Source: a virus. From it: DNA of 64,000 nucleotides. Made by a program: the position numbers and the translations under genes. Positions 2,204 to 32,833 of the stretch are shown here, one piece after another (within the stretch, counting starts at the first letter, position 1; each line of letters begins with the position of its first letter). The notes beneath the pieces are model-generated. The model did not search any database and was not told where the DNA came from. It saw only the letters and a list, made by a program, of their open reading frames with translations. The stretch lies in the IMG/VR virus record IMGVR_UViG_3300043449_001497, positions 1 through 64,000 of that record; one strand, written 5' to 3'.

Positions 2204-5200
2204 ATGGATCCGAAGACCTACGAACAGGTGAAGGCAATCAACGAGAGCCTCAAGATCCAGCAGGAAGCTGAGGCCAAGGCTCTCGAAGCTGCCCGCAAGC
2301 CTGCTCCCCGTGCCGAGGCGCGTCCGTCTGCTCCCCGCGCCCAGGCTCCGGCAAAGCCCGCTGCCCCGAAGGTTGTGGCTCCTGTCCAGGTAGGCGCTCC
2401 AGTCAAGCAGACTAAGGCCAGTGCTGCTTCCGTCGTAACCCCTCCTGTGACGGATGCAACCCGAAAGTCCAAGGTTGATGACGATCTTCGCCAGGATCTG
2501 AAGCTCGAGGACCTCTACCGGAACGTTGGGATGTTGCCGCCCACCCTCGAGGCCAAGGAGCGTGTCAACGCTTCCATCCGCGCGCTCTCCGCGAAGACGG
2601 GACTTGAGCCCCAGCGCTACAAGGAACTCGCGGCCATCCAGGGGGTCGACCTCAACGACCTTGACCAGAAGGCGCGCGAGGGCATGCCTTTCGAGAACTA
2701 CCGCAAGGCGAAGGAAGGAGCCATCGGCTTTGTGCCCGCGGACAAGCGCGTGGCGATGTTCGAGGACCTCGCGAAGGACTACGAGACCGCGGAGCAGGGC
2801 AAGATTCGCACGGACAAGCGCATCGACCTTGCCGCCGCGAAGGAAGCGCGCGGCACTGTCCCTGGGCTCACCACGGGGTACGTCGTCGGCGGTACTACGT
2901 CCGAGGAGACCCCTGAGGTCGCGAAGAGCGGCGAGCACTACTACGCAGTTGCCGAGGCGTACCTCAAGGCGGTCGACAAGGACCCCGAGGTCGTGAGGTT
3001 GGTCAACCTCTACGGCAACTCCCTCGCCAGCGGGGCGACCCAGAAGTACATCAACGACCGAGCCCAGCAGCTCCTCAAGAACAAGGGCATCACGCCCTCG
3101 TCCCCGGATGCGGAGCGTCTCGCGTCGCTCGCCCGGCGCCAGGCCCTGTACGAGGTTCTCGCGCGCAAGACCGTGGGTCAGTGGACGCCCGGCATCTTCG
3201 TGAAGGATGTCCAGGTCACGGACGACGCCGCCGCGCCGGGCCTCTTCGCGGCGATGGCCCCAAACATCGAGCTCATCGGGTTCAACAGCAAGGGCGATGC
3301 GGTCTTCCGCCAGGAGAGCGCTGCGGGCATGGGCCTGCGTCTGCTCGACGTCGTGGGTGTCGTGCCGATCCCCGGCAAGAAGCTGCCCGTGCCCATCCCC
3401 GGCCAGTCCCTTCTCGCGGGCATGCTCACCAAGGGTGAGAACGAGACCTACTACGAGGCCGCGTCGCGCGGCGCGCAGACGGGCGCCAACTGGCTCGAGG
3501 TCGCGCTGGACGCCACGGAGGGGCAGAGCCTCCCGATGCGAGGAGCGGCAGGGCTCGTGGGCCTCGCAGGCTCGATGGTGCACCCCGACGTGACCGCGGC
3601 TGCGGGCGCTCTCGGGAAGGCGGGCAAGGCGTATCGTGTCGCTCGCATCAACAAGGCCATCGCCCGTGAAGCGGAGCCCATCCTCAAGGAACTCGTCACC
3701 GCGTACCAGGCGCGCAACTTCGACAAGGCGGCGGAGCTCGAGAAGAAGCTGGCGACGAGCCCGACGCTCGGACCCCGCGGTGCCAAGGGGCACGGTGTCG
3801 TCAAGGCGTACAACCGCGGCGACATCGCGTTCGCCCAGGCGCTGGCCTCGATCAACCCCGCGCTCAAGCACCTCGACCCTTTCCTGGTCGACAACCTGGT
3901 GGCTATGGTGGGCCGTCGGGGTGACGACGCGTTGACCGAGTTTGTCTACGAGGCTGCGGGCAAGGGTTCTCCGCACATGCACTTCGGCGCGGCAGCGCCC
4001 GAGATCGCAGAGCGCACCAAGGAGGGTGTGGGTACCTCGTTCGAGACCTACCTCAACTCGGGTAACTTCGACCGTCGCATCGAGCGCATCAAGATGGCGC
4101 GCGATGCCTACGCGAAGACCATCCCCAAGACGGCGGACGAAGCGCTTGCGAAGACGTTCAACGACGCCGTTGAGCGCGTCAAGGGCCGCCTGGTCGACGC
4201 TCGCCTCGCGCAGATCCCCGAAAGCGAGCTGCAAAAGGAGATCCGCCTCCTCCAGCTGATGGAAGAGCATCGTGCTGCGCTCATGGCCGACCCGAAGAGC
4301 TGGATGGACAAGGACGGGCTGTTCCACACTGCGCTCCGCAACGACCCCATCACCGGGGGTGACGCCAACTCGACGTGGCGCCAGCGGACGTACCTCATGG
4401 ACGTCGACAACACGGCTCGGCGCGTCAACGACCTGAAGAGCCGCGACTTCGAGGCGCTCAAGGCTCGTGACCTCCAGATGTTCGACGACGCGCTCGAGGC
4501 GGTCGAGACGAACATCCAGAGTCGCATGATGTCGGCCGAGTCGCTGCGACGCAACCTGGCAGACAAGGCCGAGCTCCGCATCACGCCCATCGACATCCTC
4601 GACAAGGAGATGGCGCCTGGGACGGAACGCCTCTCGCCTTACGCGCAGGCGTCGTTCCTCGTGACGGCGCGTCAGTTCTCGCAGCAAGAGATGGACCGCA
4701 AGTCTCTCTTGCAGGCGTACCAGATGCTGGACAAGGCGTTCGAGGGTGTTGCCTCGCGGCACGACATGTCCCTGGAAGACGTCTGGCGCGACTTCTTCGT
4801 CAAGGTTGAGCAGGGCAAGGTCGAGATGCCGGGCGCGGGTGCGGCCAAGGCTGCGGGTAAGCCCCCGCCGAAGCCCCCGGCCAAGCTGCCCGCTGCACCG
4901 TCGGATGTGCCGAAGCTGGCCAACGTGCCCAACACGCCGGAGGTCAAGGCTGCCGTCGAGAAGGCCGCGAAGAAGGGTGGACGGGCGCGGGCTCCCGCGG
5001 CGATGCATCCTCGCACGGCGGATGTCGTCGCTGGGATTCCCGACGAGTTCAAGACGGACAAGCTGACCCCCGAGGCTGCCTCGAAGGTCATGAGCTTCTT
5101 CAGCAAGCTCGGGCTCGACGCCAAGTTCCCCGAGAAGCTTGGTGGTGTCGACCAGGAGGCGTTTGACGCGGTCCGTGCCTACCTCATGGCGACGGGAGAG

Positions 5201-8200
5201 CTAGAGCTCAAGGGCAAGAAGCTGGTCAAGGTCTTCGAGGAAGTCCCGGCCGCTCCGACCACGCTCGCGGGCCAGGCGGCCAAGGTCGCGCCCGAGGCCC
5301 CGCGAGTCACGATGCAGGGCCTCCAGGACGAACTTGACGACATCAGTGACGACCTCGCCCAGGTCGAGGCCGACCTCGCGACGGCCAGGGAAGACGGAGA
5401 TGACGCGGCTCTAGCGGAGTTGGCGCGCGCCGAGGAGAACCTGCTCGACCGCCGTGACGAGCTCGCGGCGCAGCTCGAGCAGGCGAAGGCAGCTCCGGCC
5501 GAGGCACCCGTGCCCGCGACTGCCCCTACCCTGCCCGACACGGAGATCCAGCAGGCGGTGACCGAGGCCAAGGCCGTCGAGGCCGTGGCGGCCAAGGTGG
5601 ACGAAGTCGCCCAGGAGGTCGCGCCCGCCGAAGCAGTTGTCGAAGCTCCGGCTCCGGCGGCTGTCGAGGCTCCGGTGAAGGCTGCCAAGCCGCCGCGAGG
5701 CAAGAAGGCAAAGGCTGCCGCTGTTCCGGCCACCGCAACCCCCGTCGAGACCGCGACGGTCGACGAGCTCCAGGCTGCCATCAACAACGTCGACGAGAGC
5801 CTGGACGAGGTAGCCGAGACCATCCAGCGCGCCGAGGACGACGCCAACGAGGCCCAGGTGACGTGGCTCCGCGGGGTGGTGGAGAAGAACCTGCGCGAGA
5901 GGAAGGCGGGACTTGAGGCACGCCTCACACGGCTCCAAGCGGCGGCCCCGCGCGATCTACGCGAGCTGCCTCCAGAGGTCCAGGCAAAGGTCGAGGACCT
6001 GGCTGGCGGTGTCTATCAGAACGTCGTCCAAGCTCTGAAGCAGCCGGATGCAGTCCGAAAGTCCCCCCAGGCGTACGCAGACTCGTACAAGGACGTTCTC
6101 GCTGAGATGTGGGACAGTCCGTACGACTTCGAGCGAGCATGGCCCGCCATGCGCGACCGCGTCGAGCTTTCGGCCGCCAACGCCCTGGACGCGGTTGAAG
6201 TCCCCGCGACGATGGAGAACCTGGGCAACCGCGCACTCTGGAAGAACGTCAAGGCCAAGGGCCGCATCGGCGCGTCGACTGGGATGCTCGAGGCTCGGGT
6301 AGGGACCGTAGAGTTCCGCATTTCGACTGTCCCCGCCGCGAAGGAAGGCAATCCGCCCGTCTTCCAAGTCATGGCGCGCGTCGGAGATGAGTTCGAGAAT
6401 CTCGGACCGAAGGCGGGCTACGCCACGCTCGAGGATGCGCTGCGCGCACTGACCCCCGCGGGCGGCAAGCCTGCCCCGCTCCGCTCGAAGATTGACTCCG
6501 TTATCAGCAGCGGCGTTCGTAAGGCGAGTATCCCGAAGAAGGGAGCTAAGCAAGCCAAGGTCGTCGAAGAAGTTGCGGAGGAAGCGCTTGACGAGGCCGT
6601 GCCAGAGCAGGTCGCGCGTCTCGAGGAAGCTGCTCCTGGCGCAGAGGAAGCGCCCGCGGTTGTGCCTGCACCGACGATGACAGGCGAGCAGTATCGTGCC
6701 AAGGCCGTGGAAGAGCTGGGCAAGATCACGCACTCTGTCGTGAAGGCCGACGGCACCAAGGTCTACGGTGTGGTCGAGGGCGACAACTTCGTGCCCAAGT
6801 ACACGCTCTCGACGTCCGAGATGCGCGACCCCACGGACGCTCTCTACTTCAAGGCGTCTCGCGGCAGCACGGCGATTGACGAGCCCGTTGCTCTGGCCAA
6901 GTCCGGCGCGCGTCCTGAGTCGCTCCAGGCGACGGTCAAGAAGATTGAGAAGCTCCCGGAAAACGCGCTCTACCAGCGTGGAGAGGTCCTCGTCGAAGCC
7001 GACAAGCTTGTGGGTCGCTTGGTCGAGGTAGAGAAGGGGAAGATCGAGTTCCTGACTCCTGAGCAGATCAAGGACCTCAAGAACCAGAACGACCCGACGG
7101 CCATCGTCACGCTCTTCCGCGGCGTGGCTGACCCCACGACGCTGCTCCACGAGGGCGCGCACTACATCCGTCGCATGGGCCTGGCTGCCGAGGACATGGA
7201 CGCCGTCACGAAGTGGATCCGTTCGCAGGGTGTCGACGTCACGCACAAGTTCGGTAACTTCGACGGTACGGCCGAAGCGGTCGAGCAGGCGGAGGAGCTG
7301 TTTGCCAGGGCATTCGAGCAGTACCTGCTCAAGGGCGAGGCCCCGGAACCCCAGCTCACCTCTCTCTTCCAGAAGGTGAAGGAGGTCTTCGAGAAGGTCT
7401 ACCGCACCATCTCGACCAGCCCGCTGGGCAAGGACATCGACCCTGATGTGAAGGCCGTCTTCGACCGCCTGTTCAAGTCCGTGCCGCAGAAGAAGCCGGA
7501 GTCGACCTTCGACCTCCTCATGCGCCACACCTTCAACAACAAGGGCATGGAGCAAGAGGGCAGCCTCACGGCGCTTGCTCGCGAGGCGAAGCGCCGTGGC
7601 ATTCCAGGTGCCACGGTGGAAGACCTCACCAAGCTCATGGTGGACGCGGGCAACAAGTACGGAGAGGGCTTCCTCGAGCAGAACGTCATCGAGTTCCCCG
7701 TCCCCGTGCTCGGCAAGGAGAAGTGGACAGGAGCCGACGTTCTCGAGCTCGACCGTCGCATCCAGATGCGCCGTAACGACTTGGAGCTGGCTCCTCTGAA
7801 GCAGGCGCTCTTCGGAGAGCCGGAAGAGGAGAAGGCGACCGAGGCAATCTTCGCGGCGCTTGAGAAGCCCAAGGGTGTGGAAGAGGGGGCGTTCTCGGCA
7901 ACGAGCCGCACGCTGGCGCGTGGGCTCACGCACACGGTCATCGGTGGTGATCTTACGGCTGAGCGCGTGATGCGGAACCTGCCTCCGGAGGTGCGCCGCA
8001 GCATCAACACCGCCTCGAACGTCATCGAGAACGGCATCGGTGACGCCATCACCGTGCTCAGCCAGGCGATCCGTGACGGCGACATGGACTTCATGTACCG
8101 CTACCTCTCGGGCGAGACGGGGATGGCCTACAAGACGGGCCGCCGTGTCATCTCCTCGGGTCATGAGTTCATCGGCGGGTTCCTCGACCTGTACAAGAAC

Positions 8201-19485: not shown

Positions 19486-21399
19486 ATGTGGGACCAGCCA
19501 CACTACCGCTACCTCATCGACCCCTCGCTCGCTCAGCACGCCATCGCCGTGGAGATGCACATCCCCGGCACGCTCGCCTGGGCCGTGCAGGGACGCCGCA
19601 AGTTCCGCCTGACGAAGAACCAGTGGCCCGAGCGCGGTGAGCCCAACGTCATTGAGATCTACGCTCCCGCGCACGCTGCGTTCGTGGTCGAGCACTTCTT
19701 CTCCGGATGGGGCGTCCCGTTCAGCGTCGAGCCTGTGAACGGCGCAGACCTCATCGAGCCGTGGCCCTCGACCCAGGAAGGGCTGGACCACCTCGAACGC
19801 AGCGGCGGCTCCCTGCTGGCCAGCGCCGTGAAGCGCGGCGAGTTGAAGCCCCACGTCGCCGACATGGCCACGCCCTACCAGAAGCGCAGTGCTGCGTGGG
19901 CGCGCAACCGCCCGTGGACGATGAACATCTGGCCGTGCGGCAGCGGGAAGACCGTCGGTGCCCTCATTGATGCGTTGACACGTCAAGGCACGGTGCTCGT
20001 CATCTGCCCCGCCAAGGCGCGGCACGTCTGGTGGACGCAGGTCCAGCAGTACACGAACATCCTACCCTGGCGCCTCACGCCCGTGTCCGAGCGCCGGAAG
20101 GGTGAGATGACCTGGCACCAGTACGTCGAGTACTGCGAGACCAACAACCAGCGCCGCTTCATCGTCGTGGGCGCGGAGAGCCTGAACGACCACCTCGAGT
20201 TCGTGGCGGGCTTGAACCCAGAGGTCCTCATCCTCGACGAGCTCCACATCCACGGGCAGTCCAAGCGTTGGAAGGCAGTGCAGGAGAAGGACGGCTCCGT
20301 GGGCTTCCAGCGCCGCCAGACGGCCTCTGGAGACAAGGACGCATGGGCGGTGGCCATCATGGACCTGAGCCGTCTGCCGAGCCTGTCGCTGCGTGTGGGG
20401 CTCACGGCGACGCCCCTGGACGACGGTCGTCCTCGTCGCCTCTGGGCGCAGCTGGACCTGCTCACTCCAGGCGGCTTCGCCCACAGCTACCGTCGCTTCG
20501 CAGAGCGGTACTGTGACGCCCAGGCCAACCCGTACGGCGGCCTCGACGACAAGGGCAGCAGCAACATCGACGAGCTTCGGATGCGGTGCGCCTACTTCAC
20601 GCACGAGGTGCCCTACAGTGAGAGCCACTCGAGCCTGCCTCCGACACGGGTTCAGGTCGTCTACCTACCCGTCGATGCCCAGGACAAGGCCGAGCGCTAC
20701 GATGACGCACAAACTTTCGATCAAGCCATCAAACAGCTTGCACGCCAAGCTCGAGGTGAGTATGAGGATGTGCCCGCGCGGGAACGTCTCATCGAGGCGC
20801 GTCTCGCGGAGGCTTGCAGTCGAAAGCGTGGCTACGTCGTTACGGAGGCTCTTGAAGGGCTGAAGGGGGGCGGCAAGGTCATCGTGTTCACTGCTCGCCG
20901 ACGGGAAGCTGAGCGCTGGGGTGAGGCTATCCGCAAGGCGGTCTCGACTGGTGACGAGGCGAAGGACGCGACGATCTGGGTTGGGCACGGCGGCGTAAGC
21001 GAGACCGAGCGCAACGACATGATCGACGGGTTCCGAAACAGTCCTGGCCCGTGCTGCCTGATCGGCACGGGCCAGGCGTTCGGGATCGCGGTGGACGGCA
21101 TGCAAACTGCCGACCTCGCCATCTTCGCCATGCTTCCCTGGAAGCCGGGCGACTTCCTTCAGTGGCGTGGTCGGTTCGACCGTCATGGCGGACGGGCCAC
21201 GCTGCTGAAGGTTGTCGTCGCCTCCGCGACCTACGATGAACGGGTCGTCGAGATCCTGACCGACAAGTTCGGACCCATCGAGCAGTTCCTCGCGGCAGAC
21301 GAGCTGACTGGCATGGGCGAGAAGCTGCTCGGCATGGAAGACCGTGGCGCTATCGTTGACGACGTGGTATCGAAGCTCGTCATCCTGGACGACGAATGA
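19486..21399 (+). CDS. SF2 (SNF2/UvsW-like) DNA helicase
   Basis: A 637-residue ATP-dependent helicase or translocase. Motif I is CGSGKT (151-156), motif II DELH (251-254, context LILDELHIHG), motif III GLTATP, and motif VI QWRGRFDRHG near residue 560. The first 125 residues form an N-terminal region as in phage SNF2-like proteins. The start at 19486 follows AAGGAG and replaces the longer open frame from 19429, which overlaps promoter bases. It heads the replication/recombination operon and overlaps the nuclease gene by four bases. Likely roles are fork remodelling, branch migration or origin opening. Confidence 0.85.
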   Translation: MWDQPHYRYLIDPSLAQHAIAVEMHIPGTLAWAVQGRRKFRLTKNQWPERGEPNVIEIYAPAHAAFVVEHFFSGWGVPFSVEPVNGADLIEPWPSTQEGLDHLERSGGSLLASAVKRGELKPHVADMATPYQKRSAAWARNRPWTMNIWPCGSGKTVGALIDALTRQGTVLVICPAKARHVWWTQVQQYTNILPWRLTPVSERRKGEMTWHQYVEYCETNNQRRFIVVGAESLNDHLEFVAGLNPEVLILDELHIHGQSKRWKAVQEKDGSVGFQRRQTASGDKDAWAVAIMDLSRLPSLSLRVGLTATPLDDGRPRRLWAQLDLLTPGGFAHSYRRFAERYCDAQANPYGGLDDKGSSNIDELRMRCAYFTHEVPYSESHSSLPPTRVQVVYLPVDAQDKAERYDDAQTFDQAIKQLARQARGEYEDVPARERLIEARLAEACSRKRGYVVTEALEGLKGGGKVIVFTARRREAERWGEAIRKAVSTGDEAKDATIWVGHGGVSETERNDMIDGFRNSPGPCCLIGTGQAFGIAVDGMQTADLAIFAMLPWKPGDFLQWRGRFDRHGGRATLLKVVVASATYDERVVEILTDKFGPIEQFLAADELTGMGEKLLGMEDRGAIVDDVVSKLVILDDE

Positions 21400-22382
21400 A
21401 CAAGATCCTGATCGATGCAGGCAAGAGCTCTCGAGGCTGGAGCCGCATCGGCAACTACTTCCACTGCCCGCAGCTCTTCGCCTACCTCTGCCGCACCGAG
21501 CAGATGGCGGACGAGAGCGGGTACTTCCCCAACCTCGGACCGTCCATCGAGGCGCTCGCCAAGGGCAGCATCGGTCACACGATGCAGGCCCACCTCCACG
21601 CCATCTGGGGCGCAGCTCAGCCCCAGGGCGTCGTCGCTGACGAGACGCTCTACACCGACCCGTCGGTGTTCATGGACCCGGAAGACGCGGCGGATGCCTG
21701 GTGCGCCAAGTACGGCAGCGAGCATCTGCTCGACCAGATGAAGACGGTCTTCCGCGCCTACCGGGCGAGGTTCCCGGAGTCGCCTGGGGATGTCATCGCC
21801 GTCGAGGCTCCGGTCACCGCGGTGCTCGGGAACCTGAACGGGAACTGGGGTCTGTGGGTTGCCGAAGAGAGGGGCGGCGAGTGGCGCAGTCTCGATGGGA
21901 CCAGCATCGAAGTGACGCCCTTGAACATGCCCGACCACAAAGAGCACGGACGTCCGATCACGCTCACTCGCCGCATCGACCTGGTAACCCGCGATCAGTC
22001 AGGCCGCTACTACATCTGGGACCACAAGCACCAGGCGAATGTGAACGCCAAACACAGCGCCACTGCGTACGCCATCGACGGTGGCTTCGCGGCGTTCCGC
22101 ATCATGGGCAAGCAGCTCTACGGCGACGCCTTCGGCGGGGTGACCATCAACCTCATCTCGAGCACCGAGCCGGGGAAGGTGGCGCGCGCCCAGGTCCCGG
22201 CGACCCCTCATCGGGATGCCCAGTTCGCCCAGCAACTCTGGCAGGCCGAGCATGCCATCGCTCAGCTCGACATGACCACCGACCCGTGGGAATGGCCGAA
22301 GGCTCAGAACGAGCTCTCGTGTTACGGGCGGTACGGTCCCTGCGCCGGGATCAACTTGTGCTCCCTCGGCCGCGCAGGCTGA
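21396..22382 (+). CDS. PD-(D/E)XK nuclease, Cas4/RecB-like with Fe-S cysteines
   Basis: A 328-residue protein. GHTMQAHLHA supplies the conserved His after an N-terminal helix, RRIDLV the metal-binding Asp, and YYIWDHKHQA the D-x-K core near residues 206-215. One Cys near the start (HCPQLF) and a C-terminal cluster (CYGRYGPCAGINLC) resemble the four cysteines holding an iron-sulphur cluster in Cas4/AddB-type nucleases. It overlaps the helicase gene and precedes a RecA-like ATPase, consistent with exonucleolytic end processing in recombination-dependent replication. The family call is firm; polarity of digestion is unknown. Confidence 0.8.
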   Translation: MNKILIDAGKSSRGWSRIGNYFHCPQLFAYLCRTEQMADESGYFPNLGPSIEALAKGSIGHTMQAHLHAIWGAAQPQGVVADETLYTDPSVFMDPEDAADAWCAKYGSEHLLDQMKTVFRAYRARFPESPGDVIAVEAPVTAVLGNLNGNWGLWVAEERGGEWRSLDGTSIEVTPLNMPDHKEHGRPITLTRRIDLVTRDQSGRYYIWDHKHQANVNAKHSATAYAIDGGFAAFRIMGKQLYGDAFGGVTINLISSTEPGKVARAQVPATPHRDAQFAQQLWQAEHAIAQLDMTTDPWEWPKAQNELSCYGRYGPCAGINLCSLGRAG

Positions 22383-22449: not shown

Positions 22450-23439
22450 ATGACCACAGAGAACCCGACCGTCATGGTCGCCGTGTACGGCAAGCCGAAG
22501 AAGAAGAAGACCAGCGACGTGCTGGCCGCCTTCCCGACGGCCCTGTGCATCGGCGTCCCCAGCGCCATCACGCTCGTTGCCCAGAACGAGCTGGGCTTCA
22601 CCCCTGCCATCTACCCGACGCCGCCCCAGACGCTCCCTGAGCTCGTCGGGCTGCTCGAGTACCTGGGCCAGTCCGGCATGGCCGCGCAGTACGGCGCGGT
22701 CTTCATCGACGACGCCAGCCACATCTGCGACCGCAGCATCACGATGTGGCACGACGAGGCGCCCGTCGGCAAGAGCGGGAAGAAGGACAAGTTCTACGCC
22801 TACCAGCAGCTGAACAAGTACCTGCTCGCGCTCTCGGGCATGGCCCGCCACATGGGCATCCACCTCATCTTCACCTTCCACGAGCGCGCTCCCGGCACCG
22901 ACCAGGACGGGTTCTTCCAGCCGGGCGGTCCGTCGCTCGGCTCGAGGAAGCAGACCGAGTCCTTCCCCTCCTGGTGCGACATCAACGTCCGCGCCATGAT
23001 CGACTCGAGCTACCCCGACCCGTGGTTCCCCGGCGTCTACTTCTGCGACCCCACGTCGCCGGAGTGGGTCACGGGTGACCGCACGGGCGTGTGCTGGACG
23101 AAGACCCCCGGCAACCTGCGCGAGATCCTCCGTGCCTCCGCCGGGGGCTACAAGCTCGCGCGCGTCGCGGGGCTCGAGTGGCAGGACGACATCGCGGACG
23201 AGCTGGCGAAGATGATCGTGGAGACCGGGGACATCAACGGCTCCATCAAAAATCTTTCCCAGTCAAATCCGCGGTTTACGGACGGGACGGAACAAATCCA
23301 TCTCCGTTGGGCTTGCCAGGATGGTATTGCCCGCGCTACCTTCATGAAGCGCAAGGCGAGGAACCTCTTCGACCTCGCGCCCAAGGAAGAGCCCAAGAAG
23401 GGTGGCGGCGTTCCGCTTCCTCCCCCTCCCACGGCCTGA
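22450..23439 (+). CDS. RecA-fold ATPase, Sak4-like recombinase (putative)
   Basis: A 329-residue protein beginning with a P-loop-like VYGKPKKKKTSD (residues 12-23) in place of a canonical GxxGxGKT. A Walker B strand AVFIDDASHI lies near residue 93, and a later TFHER sequence follows. This pattern fits the phage AAA/RecA-like group called Sak4, single-strand annealing or recombination ATPases often encoded beside a nuclease and ssDNA-binding protein, as here. The C-terminus is Lys/Pro-rich (KKGGGVPLPPPP). A 67-base gap separates it from the nuclease. The unusual P-loop makes ATP binding less certain. Confidence 0.65.
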   Translation: MTTENPTVMVAVYGKPKKKKTSDVLAAFPTALCIGVPSAITLVAQNELGFTPAIYPTPPQTLPELVGLLEYLGQSGMAAQYGAVFIDDASHICDRSITMWHDEAPVGKSGKKDKFYAYQQLNKYLLALSGMARHMGIHLIFTFHERAPGTDQDGFFQPGGPSLGSRKQTESFPSWCDINVRAMIDSSYPDPWFPGVYFCDPTSPEWVTGDRTGVCWTKTPGNLREILRASAGGYKLARVAGLEWQDDIADELAKMIVETGDINGSIKNLSQSNPRFTDGTEQIHLRWACQDGIARATFMKRKARNLFDLAPKEEPKKGGGVPLPPPPTA

Positions 23440-25331: not shown

Positions 25332-28166
25332 ATGACCTACGACCCTCGCAAGTGTGGCGCTCGCTGCGACGAGTGCCCCATCGGCCCGCACGGCAAGTTC
25401 CGTGACGGGCCGTGGATGCCTGTCCCGCCCGAGACGCACGACGGCGCGAAGATGCTGGCCGTGGCCGAGATCCCCCACATGGAGGATGCGAGCCACGGTC
25501 GTCCGATGTCGGGTCGTTCCGGCCAGGAGTGGAACAACGCGCTCATGGCGCTGGGCAAGAAGCGCACGGACATCGACCTGACGCACGTCGTCGCCTGCTC
25601 TGCCGGGACGCAGCAGAACGCCTGGGAGAAGCTGACCAAGTCCATCGACAAGGAGAACCGTCGAAGGATTGCTCTAGCGCAGCCCGTGATGCCCGATCCT
25701 ATCTCGTGCTGCCGTCCGAGGCTACTCAAGGAAGCAGATCGTTACGAGAACATCTTCGCTCTCGGACGGTCCGCGGCCAACGCCCTGACGGCGAAGACGC
25801 AGTCCATCTTCGCCCTGCGTGGCGGTCCGGTGTGGGTCGACGAGAACTACAACGCCCTGATGCAGACGCCCCTGGCGGGCGAGGAGCTGCCCCCTGGTGC
25901 GGTCCGCAAGGTGTTCCCCACCTTCCATCCGGGCTTCGTGCAGAAGAGCCCAGGCTGGCGCAGCTACTGGCACTCCGACATCTCGAAGGCGTTGCGCTGG
26001 TTCAACGGTGCCCTGCGCTGGACGGAGCCTGCCCGCACGTTCAACCCGACGCCGGATGAGCTCGAGGCGTTCCTCTCCCAGGCTGCTCCGTTCTACGCCT
26101 ACGACTTGGAGACGGACGGCATCATCGCCCTGACCTGCCAGGTGCGGTCCATCGCCATCGCCATCCCCGACCTCAACGAGAACGGTCGTGCGCTGCGTGA
26201 GGGACAGGTCGAGGCGAAGCGCTGCGAGGTCATGGGTCTGAACCTATTGAGCGGCGACGGTCATAGCAGGTTCTATAGCGCCGAGGACGAGGCTCGGATT
26301 CTCGAGGTTCTACGGACCTTCTTCCTCGACGAGTCTAAGACCAAGGTCGGTCATAACGCCGGGTACTATGACCGCCTTGTCGTTGAGCAGTGGCTCGGGG
26401 TCACACCGAAGCCGCTCATCGACACGCTCTTCGGTGCCCGGTTCCGCGCGCCGGACCTGCCCAAGGGGCTGAAGACGGTCGGCTCGGTCCTCACCGACGT
26501 GGACCGCTGGGAGACGACCGAGAAGGGCGAGAGCCTGGCGCACGGCAACGTCGATGACTGGGACCGCCTCGCGTACAACTGCACCGACTCGTCCGTGAAC
26601 GCGCGCATCGTCGTGCCGCTCATGGACTCGGCGGAGCAGGCGGGTGCGTTCCGCGACCTGCCCGAGGCGCTGCGTCCGAAGAGCTGGGCGAACCGTCGCT
26701 GGGACCTCCACGAGGTCGATCACGCCACGCAGGACATGTGCGTGAACATGCACAAGATGGGCGTCTACATCGACCAGGAAGCGCGCTGGAAGATGGAGAT
26801 CGACACCAAGGCCAGCGTGCTGAAGCGGGAGAAGAACCTCTCCGTGCTGGCCGCGGAGGTCGGCATCGCTCGTCTCGACCTCAAGTCGGCAGGCGCCAAC
26901 GACGAGAGCGATGAGACTGAGGGCATCAAGCCCGGCAGCGCCGACCAGATCCGAGACCTCTTCTACGAGAACTGGAAGCTGGGCATCCCGCCCAACATGG
27001 AGCCCCGTGACTTCTACACGATGTCGGGGATGCCCGGCACCGGGGACAAGGTTCTCCGCGGTCACCTCGCAGGCGGGCGTCTCACGGCCGAGCAGGCAGC
27101 GTTCATCAAGGAGCTGCGCCTGTATCGCCGGGAGAAGAACAAGATCCTGGGCACCGTGCTGCTGCCGTTGAACCTCACGGTGAACGACCCGAAGAAGGGC
27201 ATCGTCTGGGCGCCGGACGGGCGCGTGCGCTCGACCTGGAACGCTCACGTCACGGCTCCTGGGCGGCTCTCGAGCTCAGGCCCCAACCTCCAGAACATCG
27301 GCAGCCGCAAGGGACAGGGCAAGCTGAAGACCCTGTTTGCCGCGCAGCCCGGCAACCTGCTCGTCGGAGCGGACCTGGACCAGGCGCACCTCCGCATCAC
27401 GGCCTGCTACTGGCAGATCCCGCTGCTGCTCGAGTGCTTCAGCGAGGGCAAGGACCCGCACAACACGCTGGCCCTCCAGGTCTTCGGGGACAAGTTCCGG
27501 AACTCCGACGGCTGGGGACCGGACGGGTTCAGCCTCTACAAGAAGCCGCCGGGTGGAATGGCCAAGGCGATGCGTGACGTCATGAAGACGTTCCGCTACG
27601 CCTCCATCTACTGGGCCGACCCGATGACGGTCTGGCAGGTCCTCACCTCCACCGAGGCGGACAACGGCGAGATGCCCTACCTGCACATGACCTCGAAGGA
27701 GGTCCGTCACTTCCACGAGACGTGGCTGAAGACGGAGCCGGAGTGGATGACGGCATGGGAGACGATGCAGGCTCTCTTCCGCCACCAGGGGTACATGGAG
27801 GAGCCCGTGCTGGGCCGACGCTCCGGGAACCTGAGTGACGGGAAGAAGAACGAGGTCGTGAACTTCCCCATCCTCGCAGCCGAGACGAGCATCATGCGGA
27901 TCGCCGAGCAGGCGCTCATCGAGGCGTTCCCCTGGGACTTCGAGCGCAAGCACGGTCTCATCCACCAGTGCCACGACTCCATCGCCATCGAGTTCCCGGC
28001 ACCCCCAGGGCTCGAGAAGTGGGGGCCGAAGAAGGGCGAGCCGTTGCCCGCGGAGCTCGAGGCCATCCGCAAGCGGGTCGAGGAGCTCATGACCGTGCGC
28101 GTCCCTGGCTGGGAGGTCACGATGACGACCGAGGCATCCGTCGGAAGAAACCTCAAGGAAGCTTGA
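25332..28166 (+). CDS. Family A DNA polymerase with UDG-like N-terminal domain and 3'-5' exonuclease
   Basis: The 944-residue replicative polymerase has three parts. Residues 1-225 resemble uracil-DNA glycosylase families 4/5: cysteines C8, C12 and C15, GRPMSGRSGQEWNNAL, an N-V-C-like strand and TFHPGFV. The active-site GEAPG element is replaced by AEIPH, so glycosylase activity is doubtful. Residues about 255-450 carry the DEDD exonuclease start YDLETDG. The polymerase domain has motif A GADLDQAHLRI (near 680), motif B MKTFRYASIYWADP (near 750) and motif C HQCHDSIAIEF (near 877). SPO1-type phage polymerases have a comparable UDG-like extension. The stop codon lies inside the next promoter. 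Confidence 0.9.
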   Translation: MTYDPRKCGARCDECPIGPHGKFRDGPWMPVPPETHDGAKMLAVAEIPHMEDASHGRPMSGRSGQEWNNALMALGKKRTDIDLTHVVACSAGTQQNAWEKLTKSIDKENRRRIALAQPVMPDPISCCRPRLLKEADRYENIFALGRSAANALTAKTQSIFALRGGPVWVDENYNALMQTPLAGEELPPGAVRKVFPTFHPGFVQKSPGWRSYWHSDISKALRWFNGALRWTEPARTFNPTPDELEAFLSQAAPFYAYDLETDGIIALTCQVRSIAIAIPDLNENGRALREGQVEAKRCEVMGLNLLSGDGHSRFYSAEDEARILEVLRTFFLDESKTKVGHNAGYYDRLVVEQWLGVTPKPLIDTLFGARFRAPDLPKGLKTVGSVLTDVDRWETTEKGESLAHGNVDDWDRLAYNCTDSSVNARIVVPLMDSAEQAGAFRDLPEALRPKSWANRRWDLHEVDHATQDMCVNMHKMGVYIDQEARWKMEIDTKASVLKREKNLSVLAAEVGIARLDLKSAGANDESDETEGIKPGSADQIRDLFYENWKLGIPPNMEPRDFYTMSGMPGTGDKVLRGHLAGGRLTAEQAAFIKELRLYRREKNKILGTVLLPLNLTVNDPKKGIVWAPDGRVRSTWNAHVTAPGRLSSSGPNLQNIGSRKGQGKLKTLFAAQPGNLLVGADLDQAHLRITACYWQIPLLLECFSEGKDPHNTLALQVFGDKFRNSDGWGPDGFSLYKKPPGGMAKAMRDVMKTFRYASIYWADPMTVWQVLTSTEADNGEMPYLHMTSKEVRHFHETWLKTEPEWMTAWETMQALFRHQGYMEEPVLGRRSGNLSDGKKNEVVNFPILAAETSIMRIAEQALIEAFPWDFERKHGLIHQCHDSIAIEFPAPPGLEKWGPKKGEPLPAELEAIRKRVEELMTVRVPGWEVTMTTEASVGRNLKEA

Positions 28167-28191
28167 CGTGGTGGTAAGGTAGTGGTATGGT
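28163..28191 (+). promoter_or_regulatory. Promoter of the small-gene/thyX operon
   Basis: TTGACG (28163-28168), a 17-base spacer and TATGGT (28186-28191). The TGA stop of the polymerase gene is the second to fourth base of this -35 box. Transcription would start near 28198. Confidence 0.65.
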
Positions 28192-28214
28192 TCTCTCGAC
28201 CAAGGAGAGACCAC

Positions 28215-28295
28215 ATGACCGAGATGATCGACCTGACGATGTGGCTGCTGGACCGCTTCGCCGACCTGGCGCGGTGGGTCGGGAGGTGGCCGTGA
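28215..28295 (+). CDS. 26-residue leader peptide gene (possible)
   Basis: The frame runs from ATG 28215 to TGA 28295 and encodes a short amphipathic peptide beginning MTEMIDLTMWLLDRF and ending in GRWP. AAGGAGA precedes the start. Its stop overlaps the GTG start of the next gene (GTGA), the same coupling used down the whole operon, which supports translation. It may act only as a leader that loads ribosomes, or as a small membrane-active peptide. Confidence 0.45.
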   Translation: MTEMIDLTMWLLDRFADLARWVGRWP

Positions 28296-28591
28296 GCACG
28301 AACCCAGACGCGGCGCAGGCGTACCTGAACATGCACCTCGCCTTGGCCATCGGGAAGGGCGTGCAACTCGACGCGACGCAGACCGCCGCCATCTTCGCGC
28401 TCATCACAGACCACCGCCACGAGATTGAGGAGCTTCGCGACCGTCTCCGCGACGCACAGAAGGAGCGCGCCGCCGTGGTGGCGTGGCTGCGCGAGCAAGC
28501 CGAGACAGGTGACCCGATGCGGGCCACGGGTCGTCGGCGCATGGCAGACCACATCGAGCGCGGCGAGCATCGCCGCGAGGAGGGGGCATGA
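28292..28591 (+). CDS. Small phage protein with GEHRREE tail, family member 1
   Basis: A 99-residue protein beginning at GTG 28292 after GGAGGTGG. A coiled coil (TDHRHEIEELRDRLRDAQ) leads into the shared C-terminal module: ERAAVVAWLREQAE, a variable loop with Arg/Met, then IERGEHRREEGA. The same module occurs in the genes at 28800, 29039 and 29329, and degenerately at 32274. The codons of the tail carry a hairpin and the ribosome-binding site of the next gene. Function is unknown; the constant module with variable N-termini suggests a common docking partner. Confidence 0.65.
   Translation: MSTNPDAAQAYLNMHLALAIGKGVQLDATQTAAIFALITDHRHEIEELRDRLRDAQKERAAVVAWLREQAETGDPMRATGRRRMADHIERGEHRREEGA
28554..28591 (+). 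repeat. Hairpin/Shine-Dalgarno junction repeat, copy 1
   Basis: An 8-base stem CGCGGCGA/TCGCCGCG with a GCA loop is followed at once by GAGGAGG and the overlapping ATGA. Related copies end near 28803, 29042, 29332, 29658 and 29891. Confidence 0.6.
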
Positions 28592-28803
28592 AGGAAGTCG
28601 GAGACCGCCCGGAAGGCGTGCTGCGGACGGTACGCGATGTGTCGCGATGCATGACAAGCGTGTACCTGAACGACGAACTCATCGGCGTCGTTTCAGATCT
28701 TCAGTTGATGCTCATGCCGCGCGACGGCGTGTCTATCGACTGGAGCGCGTGGCGTGCTGCGAAACTGACTGATGGCGAGCACCGCCGCGAGGAGGAGAAG
28801 TGA
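28588..28803 (+). CDS. Small protein with HRREE tail but different body
   Basis: A 71-residue protein whose main part (MTSVYLNDELIGVVSDLQLM) is a beta-type domain unrelated to its neighbours. It still ends DGEHRREEEK. That combination shows the tail follows the DNA-level junction element and not the protein family. It overlaps its neighbours by four bases on both sides. The function is not recognised. Confidence 0.6.
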   Translation: MKEVGDRPEGVLRTVRDVSRCMTSVYLNDELIGVVSDLQLMLMPRDGVSIDWSAWRAAKLTDGEHRREEEK

Positions 28804-29042
28804 GCCAGATTTCTGAAGATGCCGTCCGTCTCGCCCTCGCGACCGTAAGGGAGCAGTTGGCAGCAGAGGTCACCGAGGCCATCGAGAAGGCCGTCCGCGA
28901 GGAGCGCAAAGCGACGGTGGCGTACTTGAGTGAGTGCGCGCAGGGCGGCGACACGTTCGGGCCGCGCGGTAGCGGCGACCACTTGCGGCTGCTCGCGACC
29001 AACATTCAGCGCGGCCAGCACCGCCGCGAGGAGGAAGAATGA
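28800..29042 (+). CDS. Small phage protein with HRREE tail, family member 2
   Basis: An 80-residue protein starting at GTG 28800. An N-terminal helix (DAVRLALATVREQLAAEV) is followed by the shared module ERKATVAYLSECAQ and a tail reading QRGQHRREEEE. Relative to member 1, the glycine-rich loop GPRGSGDH replaces the arginine loop. It is coupled to both neighbours by four-base overlaps. Function unknown. Confidence 0.6.
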   Translation: MSQISEDAVRLALATVREQLAAEVTEAIEKAVREERKATVAYLSECAQGGDTFGPRGSGDHLRLLATNIQRGQHRREEEE

Positions 29043-29332
29043 CCGTGAACGAAGGTTGTCCCATCTGCCAAGGCCGATGCTGCGAGTACGGCCTTGACGA
29101 CTACCGGGGCGCACACCGGAGCGAAGCCTTCCACACCTGCCCCTACTGCACGAACGGGACGAAGCCGACCGTGTGGACTGCCGAACAAGAGCGCGCCGCC
29201 GTCGTGGCGTACCTGCGTGACTGTGCTCACAGGGATGCGTACCGAAACCACAACCGCAACCGCGCCGAAGCGTTGTGGGACGCTGCGAACATCGTAGAGA
29301 GCGGCGAGCACCGCCGCGAGGAGGAGAAGTGA
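29039..29332 (+). CDS. Small zinc-finger-like protein with HRREE tail, family member 3
   Basis: A 97-residue protein. Residues 1-40 carry two CxxC knuckles (CPICQGRCC and CPYC), a likely zinc site. The shared module follows (ERAAVVAYLRDCAHRD, then VESGEHRREEEK). The fusion of a zinc knuckle to the module, next to members with coiled-coil or helical N-termini, indicates domain shuffling within the operon. Zinc binding is inferred from cysteine spacing. Confidence 0.6.
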   Translation: MTVNEGCPICQGRCCEYGLDDYRGAHRSEAFHTCPYCTNGTKPTVWTAEQERAAVVAYLRDCAHRDAYRNHNRNRAEALWDAANIVESGEHRREEEK

Positions 29333-29658
29333 GTGCGTATGGATACTGCCCCCGTTGCGGGGGTCTTGGAATGAGCCGCGAACGTCGGCAAAACGGCAAC
29401 GACCGTTGCGAGAACGGGCATGGCTACCCGTCCGTGTCTGCCGTCGCTAACCCCCTGCTGCCCGTGTCTGCCGACATCACCGCGCTCGTCGCGGAGGAGG
29501 AGCGTCTGCGCGAGGAAGGGGGCAGGGAGGAGCGCAAGGCGACGGTGGCGTGGTTGCGCGACGCCGCAGATACGCCCGACAATCACGCACGGAGCCTCCT
29601 GCTTCGTATCGTTGATGGTCTTGAACGCGGCGAGCACCGCCGCGAGGAGGAGCGATGA
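29329..29658 (+). CDS. Small zinc-ribbon protein with HRREE tail, family member 4
   Basis: A 109-residue protein from GTG 29329. The N-terminus has CPRCGGLG and a later CENGHG, a probable zinc ribbon. A helix with LVAEEERLREEGGREERK leads into TVAWLRDAADTPD and the tail LERGEHRREEER. It resembles member 3 in having a metal-binding front, but the ribbon sequence differs. Four-base overlaps join it to neighbouring genes. Confidence 0.6.
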   Translation: MSAYGYCPRCGGLGMSRERRQNGNDRCENGHGYPSVSAVANPLLPVSADITALVAEEERLREEGGREERKATVAWLRDAADTPDNHARSLLLRIVDGLERGEHRREEER

Positions 29659-29891
29659 ACGTGTGGGCGGCAACCTTCGCGCTGTTGGCGTGCGGGCTTG
29701 TGGCGTGGGTCTGGTGGACGGTCAAGCTCGACACGCAGCGCATGATCGAGGACTTCCAGCGCATGTTTCCGGGACGCTGCGCGGTATGCGCGTTCCACCG
29801 CTGTGGCGTGATGGAGGGGCACGCGCGCGGCCCCGTTGAACCGCACAACTGCATCGAACGCGGAGACCACCACCGCGAGGAGGAGCCATGA
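29655..29891 (+). CDS. Small membrane-anchored Cys-rich protein with HREE tail
   Basis: A 78-residue protein. Residues 3-24 form one membrane helix (WAATFALLACGLVAWVWWTV). A soluble part follows with C43, C46 and C51 (GRCAVCAFHRCGV) and a tail ERGDHHREEEP. The junction element is the most diverged of the set (a 5-base stem). It probably sits in the inner membrane with its cysteines inside the cell. Confidence 0.6.
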   Translation: MNVWAATFALLACGLVAWVWWTVKLDTQRMIEDFQRMFPGRCAVCAFHRCGVMEGHARGPVEPHNCIERGDHHREEEP

Positions 29892-30223
29892 CCGAGGAAC
29901 AGATCGAGCTCGGGCGGCGCGCCGTGGCGTGCAAGGGCTGGAGGTGGATGGACGGTATGCTGACGGATGAGGGATGGCGTGTGCGTCCGTCGGATCTCCC
30001 GCTCGGATGCGTTGCGCTCCCCGACCTCACCGACCCCGCCACGCTGGGGTGCCTGCTCGCGCTGGTGCGTGAGGCGCACGGGCAGACGACGCTGTCTCCC
30101 GTGTCTCGCGGGCGGCGTCTATGGTGCCTCGCGGACTTCGGTACGACGGCGTTGCAAGGGGAAACAGAAGCCGAACTGCTCGTCGCCGCGCTGGAGGCTG
30201 CGCCATGCACGACAACACCGTAA
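29888..30223 (+). CDS. Hypothetical protein at the end of the overlapping gene chain
   Basis: A 111-residue protein (MTEEQIELGRRAVACKGWRW...). It keeps the four-base overlap with its predecessor but lacks the HRREE tail. A Trp/Gly-rich first half and an ALVREAHGQ helix are visible. Proteins with a similar WRWMDGML start are common among phage hypothetical proteins, without an assigned role. It overlaps the next gene by 19 bases. Confidence 0.6.
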   Translation: MTEEQIELGRRAVACKGWRWMDGMLTDEGWRVRPSDLPLGCVALPDLTDPATLGCLLALVREAHGQTTLSPVSRGRRLWCLADFGTTALQGETEAELLVAALEAAPCTTTP

Positions 30224-30396
30224 GCGCGATCTTCTTCGGGTTCGTTGTCCTCTTCCTCATCGGCCTCGGCATCTGGGCGGGGTCGAGTTCGTACCACAAG
30301 GACACCTTCAAGTGTACGAACGCTTGCGCCGGGGCGCACAGCATCGAGTTCAACAACGACTGCTACTGCCAGTTGGAGCCTCGTCATGAACCGTGA
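30205..30396 (+). CDS. Small single-pass membrane protein
   Basis: A 63-residue protein starting inside the previous gene. Residues 6-28 form a membrane helix (VSAIFFGFVVLFLIGLGIW). The outer part has four cysteines (CTNACAGAH and CYCQ), which could form disulphides if exported. It overlaps the thyX start by 11 bases. Possible roles include superinfection exclusion or membrane modification, without direct evidence. Confidence 0.55.
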   Translation: MHDNTVSAIFFGFVVLFLIGLGIWAGSSSYHKDTFKCTNACAGAHSIEFNNDCYCQLEPRHEP

Positions 30397-31231
30397 AGAA
30401 CTGCTGGCCAAGCACGGCCAGCCTGTCCAGGTGCTCGACCACGGTCACGTTCGCCTCGTCGACGTGATGGGCGACGACGAGCGCGTGGAACAGGTCGCTC
30501 GACTTTCCTACCAGCAGGGAACCCGCAAGGTGTCCGAAACCCGGAGCTTGCTGCGTTACCTCATCAGGCACCGCCACACGTCTCCGCTGGAACAGGCCGT
30601 CATCACGCTCGACATGAAGATGCCGATCTTCGTGGCGAGGCAGCTGGTGCGCCACAGGACGCAGAGCATCAACGAGCTGAGCGGTCGGTACTCCGAGATG
30701 CCGGAGGAGTTCTACGTCCCGGACGAGTTCTACTCGCAGTCGACGACGAACAAGCAGGGCCGGGGCGAAGAGCTGGACCCACGCGTCTCGGTGTACTCGC
30801 GCCAGGACGCGCGCCAGTGTGCGGAGAACGCCTTCGACGCCTACCGAGAGATGCGCGCACGCAACGTCGCCAGGGAGACGGCTCGCATGGTCCTGCCTCT
30901 CTCGACGTACACGCAGTGGTGCACGACGATGAACCTGCACAACCTGCTCCACATGCTGGAGCTGCGCCTCGACCACCACGCCCAGTGGGAGTGCCGCATG
31001 TACGCGAATGCCATCGCGCTCATCGTGGCGGACTGGTGCCCCCTCATCTGGGAAGCGTTCATCGACTACCGCCTGGACGCGTGCACCTTCTCCCGTGAGG
31101 AGGTGAAGTACATCCGCGAGCGCATCGCGATGGACGGGCTGGACCTGCCCAACGACGACGATCTGACCGCGAAGACGAACCTCTCCTACCGCGAACGCGG
31201 GGAGTTCCTACTCAAGCTGGGGGTAATATGA
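30386..31231 (+). CDS. thyX: Flavin-dependent thymidylate synthase
   Basis: A 281-residue enzyme that makes dTMP from dUMP with FAD, NADPH and methylene-tetrahydrofolate. The ThyX signature RHRTQSINELSGRY occupies residues 89-102. The C-terminal LELRLDHHAQWECRMYA contains the substrate-binding Arg/His/Gln cluster. Size is typical for phage ThyX. The start at 30386 lies inside the preceding gene. Together with the dCMP deaminase 140 bases downstream it forms a dTMP supply module (dCMP to dUMP to dTMP). Confidence 0.92.
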   Translation: MNREELLAKHGQPVQVLDHGHVRLVDVMGDDERVEQVARLSYQQGTRKVSETRSLLRYLIRHRHTSPLEQAVITLDMKMPIFVARQLVRHRTQSINELSGRYSEMPEEFYVPDEFYSQSTTNKQGRGEELDPRVSVYSRQDARQCAENAFDAYREMRARNVARETARMVLPLSTYTQWCTTMNLHNLLHMLELRLDHHAQWECRMYANAIALIVADWCPLIWEAFIDYRLDACTFSREEVKYIRERIAMDGLDLPNDDDLTAKTNLSYRERGEFLLKLGVI

Positions 31232-31844: not shown

Positions 31845-32284
31845 CCAGCCGCTGGTTCTTGGCGCACGCCAAGACGACTGAAGACGCCGACATCGATGCG
31901 TGGAAGGCGCAGCTCGAGGCCCGCATGGGCTACGACAGTGTCCCTGCCGAGGTGACCCCTGGGCGTGACGACTACAAGAAGCGCAGCCGTGCGCTCGGTG
32001 GTTGGCATGCCTGGTCCCGTGACGTGCCCGTCGCCGAGAACTGGGAGAGCGAGCCGCTCTTCCACGGCATCGTCGTGCCCGTCGGACACCTCGACGAGCC
32101 CAGCGTGGGCAGGGCAACCTCTGACCTCGTGACGGGGTTCCTGCGCCGGGGCAAGTACGCCTACGCCTGGGATGTTACGACGAGTGAGCTGGCCCGCATC
32201 GCTGACGTCCGCACCCTGGATAGCGACTCGTGGACCATGACGGCCACCCTTCTCCTGGAGCGCCAGCCTGTCCATGCCGCTTGA
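31841..32284 (+). CDS. Hypothetical protein of the nucleotide-metabolism operon
   Basis: A 147-residue protein with an aromatic/basic core (ALGGWHAWSRDVPVAENW) and a later YAYAWDVTTSEL strand region. No active-site motif could be matched. Coupled translation with dCMP deaminase (ATGA) and an 11-base overlap with the next gene show it is in the same message. Possible relation to nucleotide modification is context only. Confidence 0.6.
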   Translation: MTSRWFLAHAKTTEDADIDAWKAQLEARMGYDSVPAEVTPGRDDYKKRSRALGGWHAWSRDVPVAENWESEPLFHGIVVPVGHLDEPSVGRATSDLVTGFLRRGKYAYAWDVTTSELARIADVRTLDSDSWTMTATLLLERQPVHAA

Positions 32285-32555
32285 TATCGACGACCTTGAA
32301 CGCTGCGCCGAGAAGGCTGGCGTGTGGCGTGCTGCCATCCTCTCCCTGGTGGCGGAGGTCCGTGACCTGCGGATGGTGAAGGACGAGCATCAGATGGACA
32401 ACACGCACGCCTACGACGAAGGTGTGTGCGACGGCATCCTGATGGAGCGGCGCGGGGTCGTGGCGTACCTTCGCCGGATGGAGGAGGGCTACTACGACAT
32501 CCACATGACGGCAGGGTTCATCGAGAAGGGCGACCATCACGAGAGCTTGACGTGA
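32274..32555 (+). CDS. Small protein with degenerate HRREE-family module, member 5
   Basis: A 93-residue protein. The C-terminal half repeats the module found at 28.3-29.7 kb: MERRGVVAYLRRMEE, a variable loop, then IEKGDHHESLT. The GAGGAG ribosome-binding site that follows the tail in the upstream copies is absent, and the protein ending has drifted (HHES for HRREE). This supports the idea that the RREE part is selected at RNA level while ERxxVAxLR is a protein feature. The N-terminal half is a helix with a likely metal-poor Asp/Glu cluster. Confidence 0.6.
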   Translation: MPLDIDDLERCAEKAGVWRAAILSLVAEVRDLRMVKDEHQMDNTHAYDEGVCDGILMERRGVVAYLRRMEEGYYDIHMTAGFIEKGDHHESLT

Positions 32556-32833
32556 GCCTCGAGGGCTACGACATCCTCGAGGTAGACCGCCACCGCTGGA
32601 CCGTGGCGGGCTGGTGCACCTATGTCCGCATCCACCGGATGGACATGGCGACGATGGGCTACCGCGAGCTCTGGACCGTGGTGCAGCAGCTCTACCCAGG
32701 CAAGTGGGCCATCCAGTCCTTCCCGCCTGCGGACGCGCTCATCGACCAGGCGAACAAGTACCACATGCTCGTCTTCGACCAGGAGCCTGACGGCTTCGAC
32801 CTGTGGCCACCGAAGAAGCGACGCCACACTTGA
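32552..32833 (+). CDS. Hypothetical protein
   Basis: A 93-residue protein from GTG 32552, overlapping the previous stop. It is aromatic and mixed alpha/beta (RHRWTVAGWCTYVRIHRMD) with a basic end (WPPKKRRHT). No family is recognised. The TGA stop lies inside the -35 box of the next promoter, the same arrangement seen after the DNA polymerase gene. Confidence 0.6.
   Translation: MSLEGYDILEVDRHRWTVAGWCTYVRIHRMDMATMGYRELWTVVQQLYPGKWAIQSFPPADALIDQANKYHMLVFDQEPDGFDLWPPKKRRHT

What the first reader, a model, noticed from the sequence alone, without database searches (positions are those of the whole stretch)
28215..30223. Chain of overlapping small genes whose shared protein tail is really a hairpin plus Shine-Dalgarno cassette
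Six consecutive genes end in variants of GEHRREE/GDHHREE, including two (28588, 29655) whose bodies are unrelated. At DNA level each tail is a GC stem-loop (5-8 bp, partly compensated between copies) followed immediately by GAGGAGG and an ATGA or GTGA overlap. So the 'conserved' RREE residues look like a by-product of a duplicated RNA element that couples translation of each gene to the next. The diverged copy at 32274, with no coupled gene needing that site, has lost RREE (HHES). Four genes also share a real protein module ERxAxVAxLR. This may be a cassette system that lets the phage swap N-terminal effector domains while keeping expression.
Basis: partly seen in the sequence, partly recalled or inferred. 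Interest (0 to 1): 0.7.

Follow-up and report, generated by a model that had tools for sequence, protein, structure and literature searches.

The report
Shuffled phage gene array, two joints
A phage carries a run of small overlapping genes built from interchangeable pieces that have been swapped, within and between different phages, at two short conserved DNA words, one of which also holds the ribosome-binding site that starts the next gene.

Summary
Six consecutive genes (28292-29891) end in G[EQD]H[RH]REE plus two residues, and each overlaps the next by 4 nt. About 90 such coupled tails turned up in metagenome viruses.

The reading needs correcting. The Shine-Dalgarno (SD) part holds: the two Glu codons over the SD are GAG 178 times and GAA twice, against 420:146 in the gene bodies. 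Across AIERGEH-ending genes, an SD tracks overlap with a next gene (p = 3e-6), while RREE itself does not. The hairpin part fails: the stem shows no covariation, coupled variants such as RKEE and LKEN lose it, and IERGEH is a protein motif also found without HRR or a coupled gene. The gene at 32274 is in fact overlapped by an ORF (GTGA).

The larger finding is a two-joint shuffling system. Genes are N | ERAAVVAWL word | M | IERGEHRREE-SD-RTGA word | next gene. DNA identity steps from about 0.3-0.4 to about 0.9 exactly at these words, and pieces recur with different partners in independent datasets. The first word has no SD and is not at a gene junction, yet its synonymous sites are equally frozen. 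I infer exchange by short homology; what the proteins do remains unknown.

The parts
28163..28191 (+). Promoter-like site TTGACG-17-TATGGT at the head of the array; its first hexamer overlaps the polA stop
   Evidence: Only sigma-70-like site in 28000-30500 (0.1 expected); aligned in most relatives that carry the leader next to polA
28215..28295 (+). 26-codon leader ORF (MTEMIDLTMWLLDRFADLARWVGRWP), overlaps the first array gene by GTGA
   Evidence: Homologues in a dozen other contigs
28292..28591 (+). Array gene 1: N-part, ERAAVVAWL word, M-part, IERGEHRREE tail
   Evidence: AlphaFold2 model mean pLDDT 89.5
28463..28489 (+). First joint word (ERAAVVAWL) of gene 1
28553..28591 (+). Second joint word of gene 1: IERGEHRREE, SD GAGGAGG, ATGA
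28588..28803 (+). Array gene 2: unrelated body ending LTDGEHRREEEK; tail 28765-28803
   Evidence: Body homologues, 52-92% identical, in six other loci
28800..29042 (+). Array gene 3 (module gene; first word 28902-28928, tail 29004-29042)
29039..29332 (+). Array gene 4 (Cys-rich N-part; first word 29189-29215; tail 29294-29332); its M-part is identical in L006 but joined there to a different N-part and next gene
29329..29658 (+). Array gene 5 (Cys-rich N-part; first word 29530-29556; tail 29620-29658)
29655..29891 (+). Array gene 6: hydrophobic N-terminus and Cys/His body, only the tail related (29853-29891)
   Evidence: profile hit confined to 29826-29888; body homologue in L047, 82%
29888..30223 (+). 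Recurrent end-of-array gene (MTEEQIELGRRAVACKGWRW..), no tail
   Evidence: 48 homologous starts in the loci; 24 lie directly after a GxH-tail gene
32274..32555 (+). Diverged outlying module gene (first word 32445-32471) ending GDHHESLT
   Evidence: profile E 7.7e-7; GTGA overlap with the next ORF
32552..32833 (+). 93-codon ORF that overlaps 32274 by GTGA
   Evidence: no homologue among fetched loci
22450..23439 (+). Sak4-like (RecA-fold) ssDNA-annealing protein, candidate agent of short-homology exchange
   Evidence: phrog_124 E 2.4e-10; relatives in 7 of 25 array-bearing records
21396..22382 (+). Exonuclease-like gene beside it
   Evidence: phrog_1218 E 2.8e-4

Best explanation
This is an array of small phage genes, in the replication region, assembled from interchangeable parts. 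Each module gene has a variable N-part, the word ERAAVVAWL (27 nt), a variable M-part of about 20-35 residues, and the word IERGEHRREE-SD-RTGA (about 33-39 nt), whose last bases start the next gene. The words encode the facing ends of two helices of a C-terminal helical hairpin plus its cap (GEH); the residues after GEH are poorly ordered and largely set by the SD of the overlapping next gene. Because the words are nearly the same DNA in every gene, recombination by short homology (most simply a phage annealing recombinase such as the Sak4-like protein) can swap N-parts, M-parts or whole downstream genes between array genes and between phages. Each joint keeps the reading frame, the fold and the ribosome-binding site. 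SHOWN: the words, the overlaps, the SD codon constraint, the exchange of parts with breakpoints at the words, and recurrence in independent datasets. INFERRED: the recombination enzyme, translational coupling in vivo, and any benefit. UNKNOWN: what the proteins do.
For: Sampling without reference to the tail end also finds the system. Identity steps: same M / different N pairs rise from 0.40 before ERAAVVAWL to 0.96 in it and 0.88-0.90 after (54 pairs); same N / different M pairs fall from 0.95 to 0.39 (23 pairs); same next gene / different M pairs rise from 0.27 to 0.82-0.96 in the tail and 0.81-0.89 after the ATGA (41 pairs); flanks of unrelated pairs are about 0.3. Gene 4 and L006 share more than 100 identical nt bounded by the words. 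With 99 module genes on 61 contigs from 48 datasets, 15 M-clusters have more than one N and 14 N-clusters more than one M; 16 combinations recur in more than one dataset, and some alternative combinations each recur. Synonymous sites are frozen in BOTH words (R .81 vs .26 expected, V .97 vs .32 in the first; R .93 vs .26, G .93 vs .29 in the tail). SD codon test p = 2.7e-17. SD tracks overlap p = 3.5e-6. Unrelated genes share at least 23 identical nt in 18-19% of pairs at each word; the minimal pairing length is 23-27 bp for Red-beta and 31-34 for RecA (PMC3945230). Model of gene 1: helices 28-72 and 75-90, tail less certain. A 143-nt piece with GC 0.67, bounded by the two words, lies in an AT-rich (0.38) stretch of a 132-kb phage.
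Against: All sequences are metagenome contigs, with no isolate and no read-level check of the joints. Frozen synonymous sites could be recent common descent rather than exchange or selection. The Sak4-like gene is found in only 7 of 25 array-bearing records (many are fragments), and its family model also rings in 13 of 14 cellular control genomes, so the annotation is loose. RecT was not found in seven records lacking it; RecA-like genes were found in two of them. No expression data.
Confidence: 0.72

Rival explanations
1. One reading: a duplicated RNA hairpin plus SD element, selected for its structure, couples the genes; the peptide is a by-product.
For: Stem wobble bases are C/T far above codon usage; tails fold more stably than synonymous resamples (-14.8 vs -10.2 kcal/mol); the EE codons are clearly constrained by the SD.
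Against: No covariation: 1 both-sided change against 2.3 in shuffles; score 0.084 vs 0.089. RKEE, LKEN and similar tails lose the stem but keep SD and overlap. The ERAAVVAWL word is equally frozen without SD or junction. IERGEH exists without HRR in many phages.
Confidence: 0.08
2. Ordinary duplication and divergence of a conserved two-helix protein with no special exchange: the words are simply the conserved protein core and the rest evolves fast.
For: The motif is protein-conserved across distant phages and the model gives the words a structural role.
Against: Variable parts recur at 75-100% identity with different partners; divergence alone cannot give identical M-parts beside unrelated N-parts.
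Confidence: 0.06
3. Site-specific recombination of gene cassettes, integron-like, at the words: fixed leader, variable cassettes, recurrent last gene.
For: Leader, array and last-gene layout; both words can fold into GC-rich hairpins.
Against: No tyrosine recombinase in the window's record or in 8 of 9 other array-bearing records, and no serine resolvase in any of the ten. Words are coding and variable; no covariation in either fold; exchange also occurs inside genes.
Confidence: 0.06
4. Assembly chimeras: short repeats made assemblers join unrelated contigs.
For: All data are metagenomic and the words are repeats of 27-39 nt.
Against: The same combinations recur in independent datasets, including alternative combinations each seen twice or more. 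L025 has AT-rich sequence on both sides of the piece. Reading frames and overlaps stay intact, and contigs of two bacterial-bin assemblies (L106, L107) carry array genes with the same layout.
Confidence: 0.04
5. The C-terminal tail peptide is itself a functional tag (binding or turnover signal) spread onto unrelated proteins.
For: The tail is on a methyltransferase, a polymerase fragment and the 28588 family.
Against: Residues after GEH are free to change as long as an SD remains (RKEE, LKEN, RREG, HEEL), and the recurrent last gene lacks the tail.
Confidence: 0.12

Closest known systems
SAS/ESAS of cluster K mycobacteriophages (2011, PMC3203893)
   Same: Short conserved repeats carrying AGGAG at the starts of otherwise unrelated non-structural genes; about half have inverted repeats just upstream.
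   Different: SAS lie mostly where genes are more than 50 bp apart; here the repeat encodes the upstream protein's C-terminus, the genes overlap by 4 nt, and there is a second, intragenic word.
Promoter early stem-loops (PeSLs) of T4-type phages (Arbiol 2010, Comeau 2014; as cited in PMC4503421)
   Same: Repeated regulatory sequence that is also a recombination joint, giving modular shuffling of genes.
   Different: PeSLs are promoter/terminator elements; here the joints are coding, carry an SD, and lie both inside and at the end of genes.
Termination-reinitiation / translational coupling at ATGA overlaps (PMC6728339)
   Same: ATGA/TGATG overlaps with an SD inside the upstream gene.
   Different: Usually gene-specific; here one DNA word supplies it to many unrelated gene pairs.
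HsdS target-recognition-domain shuffling in type I restriction systems (PMC3077401)
   Same: Variable segments exchanged at conserved coding segments.
   Different: One gene per system, with known function; here a multi-gene phage array, function unknown.

Membership tests
SAS/ESAS (cluster K phages) | 13-bp GGGATAGGAGCCC 3-7 bp before start codons | tested here: not met
   Consensus here is CGCGGCGAGCACCGCCGCGAGGAG; SAS text read
SAS/ESAS (cluster K phages) | Predominantly in front of genes separated by more than 50 bp from their upstream neighbour | tested here: not met
   90 of 91 G[EDQWG]H[RH]REE endings overlap the next start
T4 PeSL mobile regulatory cassettes | Early promoter plus stem-loop terminator in the repeat | tested here: not met
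   No promoter- or terminator-like site at the tails; the only promoter-like site is at the array head
T4 PeSL mobile regulatory cassettes | Repeat acts as joint for shuffling of genes | tested here: met
   Identity steps and recombinant combinations
Termination-reinitiation coupled gene pairs | ATGA/GTGA/TGATG overlap with an internal SD | tested here: met
Termination-reinitiation coupled gene pairs | Downstream translation depends on upstream translation | not testable with these tools
   Needs reporters
Integron-type gene cassette array | Tyrosine integrase acting at structured attC sites | tested here: not met
   No PF00589 in the window's record (which may be incomplete) or most relatives; no covariation in the folds
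Structured RNA element | Covarying stem | tested here: not met
   no Rfam family either
Type I HsdS domain shuffling | Specificity subunit of a restriction-modification enzyme | tested here: not met
   No Pfam or NCBIfam match of the array proteins; resemblance is only in the mode of exchange

The most novel reading that the evidence does not exclude
A phage 'exon-shuffling' system without introns: two frozen coding words in each small gene keep frame, fold and ribosome-binding site at every crossover, so array genes recombine within and between phage lineages to generate new small proteins, with selection maintaining the words' DNA identity for this purpose.
Probability: 0.35. Interest if true: 0.85.

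Novelty: new variant of a known kind. Interest (0 to 1): 0.66.

Why it matters
Phage genomes are full of fast-changing small genes of unknown origin. Here the joints are visible: two short coding words at which pieces have been exchanged, one of which also carries the start signal of the next gene. It gives a concrete, testable route by which new small phage proteins can arise already in frame, foldable and translated, and an example in which 'conserved residues' (RREE) reflect a ribosome-binding site.

Tried and rejected
Near DNA search and tblastn of single array proteins against 50,697 named phages: no match, even at E 10 for one short module gene. Pfam, NCBIfam and PHROGs: no family for the module; only some N-parts or fusions match. 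PDB fold search of the model: nothing significant. Rfam: none. Hairpin selection: rejected; a hairpin in the first word also shows no covariation. Site-specific recombinase: not found in most records. Idea that the AT-rich phage L025 gained an insert into an empty site: its nearest relative (L232, 55%) carries what looks like a diverged form of the module, so replacement is as likely as insertion. RREE versus coupling as a direct correlation: not significant (p = 0.34). An early comparison of records with and without the window's polA wrongly placed one contig (L080) in the second group; its hits were disregarded. First attempts at PHROG scans failed on frame errors.

Full report
OBSERVATION. 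Six consecutive ORFs (28292-29891) end in G[EQD]H[RH]REE plus two residues and overlap the next ORF by ATGA or GTGA. The shared core occurs 9 times in the window at up to 3 mismatches (0.52 expected); six are these tails. Stem lengths are about 5-8 bp. The window is part of a 72,743-base virus record. One detail is wrong: the outlying gene 32274-32555 does overlap, by GTGA, a 93-codon ORF (32552-32833), though its SD is weak.

RELATIVES. Named phages gave nothing. Scanning viral contigs for DNA encoding GEHRREE gave 99 stretches; apart from chance matches in other frames, the cases are at ORF ends, nearly always with an overlapping start. Two further scans did not use the tail's end: DNA for ERAAVVAWL and for AIERGEH. 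Of 91 non-redundant ORFs with a G[EDQWG]H[RH]REE ending, 90 overlap the next start (63 loci, a few of which share a contig); the odd one out, L093, looks like a chance frame.

SHINE-DALGARNO. The two Glu codons over the SD are GAG 178, GAA 2, against 420:146 in the bodies of the same genes (p = 2.7e-17); the Glu of IER, a few codons earlier, is mostly GAA (41:25). Among 67 AIERGEH-ending ORFs, an SD-like stretch near the stop is present in 46 of 54 overlapping and 2 of 13 non-overlapping genes (p = 3.5e-6), whereas RREE itself does not track overlap (p = 0.34). The three RREE genes scored as non-overlapping were inspected: one precedes a short ORF, one overlaps by more, and one lineage (L041/L073) truly lacks a next gene. 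Two module genes with no next gene stop directly after GEHRR/GEHCR, without EE.

HAIRPIN. On 61 distinct sequences the 7-bp stem has 1 both-sided change (2.3 in shuffles) and a covariation score of 0.084 (0.089). RKEE, LKEN and similar tails lose the stem but remain overlapped with an SD. Synonymous resampling does make weaker stems (-10.2 vs -14.8 kcal/mol), and stem wobble bases are frozen; but the word ERAAVVAWL, which has no SD and is not at a gene junction, is frozen to a similar extent. Freezing therefore belongs to both words and does not argue for the hairpin. Loop wobble sites are also depleted. Rfam finds nothing.

TWO JOINTS. Array genes divide into N | ERAAVVAWL | M | IERGEHRREE-SD-RTGA | next gene. 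Pairs with the same M but unrelated N have identity 0.40 just before the first word, 0.96 in it and about 0.9 after; pairs with the same N but unrelated M do the reverse; pairs with the same next gene but unrelated M switch at the tail. Gene 29039 and L006 share over 100 identical nt bounded by the words, with unrelated flanks. Clustering gives 15 M-clusters with more than one N and 14 N-clusters with more than one M, among 99 genes, 61 contigs and 48 datasets; 16 combinations recur across datasets, which speaks against chimeric assembly. The tail also sits on a polymerase-A fragment (L005 3347-3520, Pfam 2.5e-8), a DNA methyltransferase (L008, phrog_56 1.4e-15) and the 28588 family.

SPREAD. 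Only 7 of 25 array-bearing records have relatives of the window's polA and Sak4-like genes; the others, where compared, share diverged (65-70%) DNA with the window's structural half. Two M-parts are shared at 93-95% DNA identity between records with and without that polA. In an AT-rich stretch of a 132-kb phage the piece from the first word to the SD has GC 0.67 against 0.38 around it; a relative of its N-part in a 151-kb phage ends in what looks like a diverged module, so the piece may be a replacement rather than an insertion.

ANATOMY. A promoter-like TTGACG-17-TATGGT, a 26-codon leader ORF with homologues in a dozen other contigs, the tail genes, and a recurrent last gene whose homologues lie directly behind a tail gene in 24 of 48 cases.

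PROTEIN. AlphaFold2 on 25 members models gene 1 as a long helix (28-72, containing the first word) and a return helix (75-90, ending in IER); mean pLDDT 89.5, last ten residues about 72. No PDB, Pfam or NCBIfam match for the module. The function is unknown; position between polA, thyX and dCMP deaminase suggests expression with replication genes (inference).

MECHANISM. Homologous annealing at words near the minimal pairing length (23-27 bp for Red-beta; PMC3945230) fits: unrelated genes share at least 23 identical nt in 18-19% of pairs at each word. The window encodes a Sak4-like protein, but that family model also rings in most cellular controls and relatives of the gene are absent from many records; two of those have RecA-like genes. 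No integrase or resolvase in the window's record. This step is inference.

VERDICT. The SD half and the cassette idea are supported, the hairpin half is not. The most interesting part is the two-joint shuffling, a new variant of phage mosaicism at conserved boundaries. Comparison with SAS/ESAS repeats (PMC3203893), T4 PeSLs, ATGA coupling (PMC6728339) and HsdS shuffling (PMC3077401) shows shared features with each but membership only in the broad class of SD-bearing overlapping gene pairs.

Noticed in passing
28163-28295: Promoter-like site overlapping the polA stop and a conserved 26-codon leader ORF ahead of the array; leader homologues occur in a dozen other contigs.
   Followed up: partly
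L005 3347-3520: A fragment around a DNA polymerase A motif (NPNLQNLPIRTEEGRRIRELF) fused in frame to the array tail, unlike the phage's own polA.
   Followed up: partly
L025 12587-12729: GC-rich 143-nt piece bounded by the two words inside a gene of an AT-rich stretch of a 132-kb phage; looks like recent transfer between very different phages.
   Followed up: partly
L008 (250-aa array protein): DNA methyltransferase that ends in the array tail (DEEDPGEHRREGEP) and is followed by the recurrent last gene.
   Followed up: no
L106, L107: Array genes in contigs binned as Chloroflexi and proteobacterium MAGs; probably phage contigs, possible host hints.
   Followed up: no
window 2150-11107: A single 2985-codon ORF, a very large protein in the structural half of the phage.
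   Followed up: no
L017, L023, L062 (array genes): Array genes whose bodies are long Ala/Trp-rich repeats (AAARAAAWDAAW..) ending LLDRMLxCGEHRREE.
   Followed up: no
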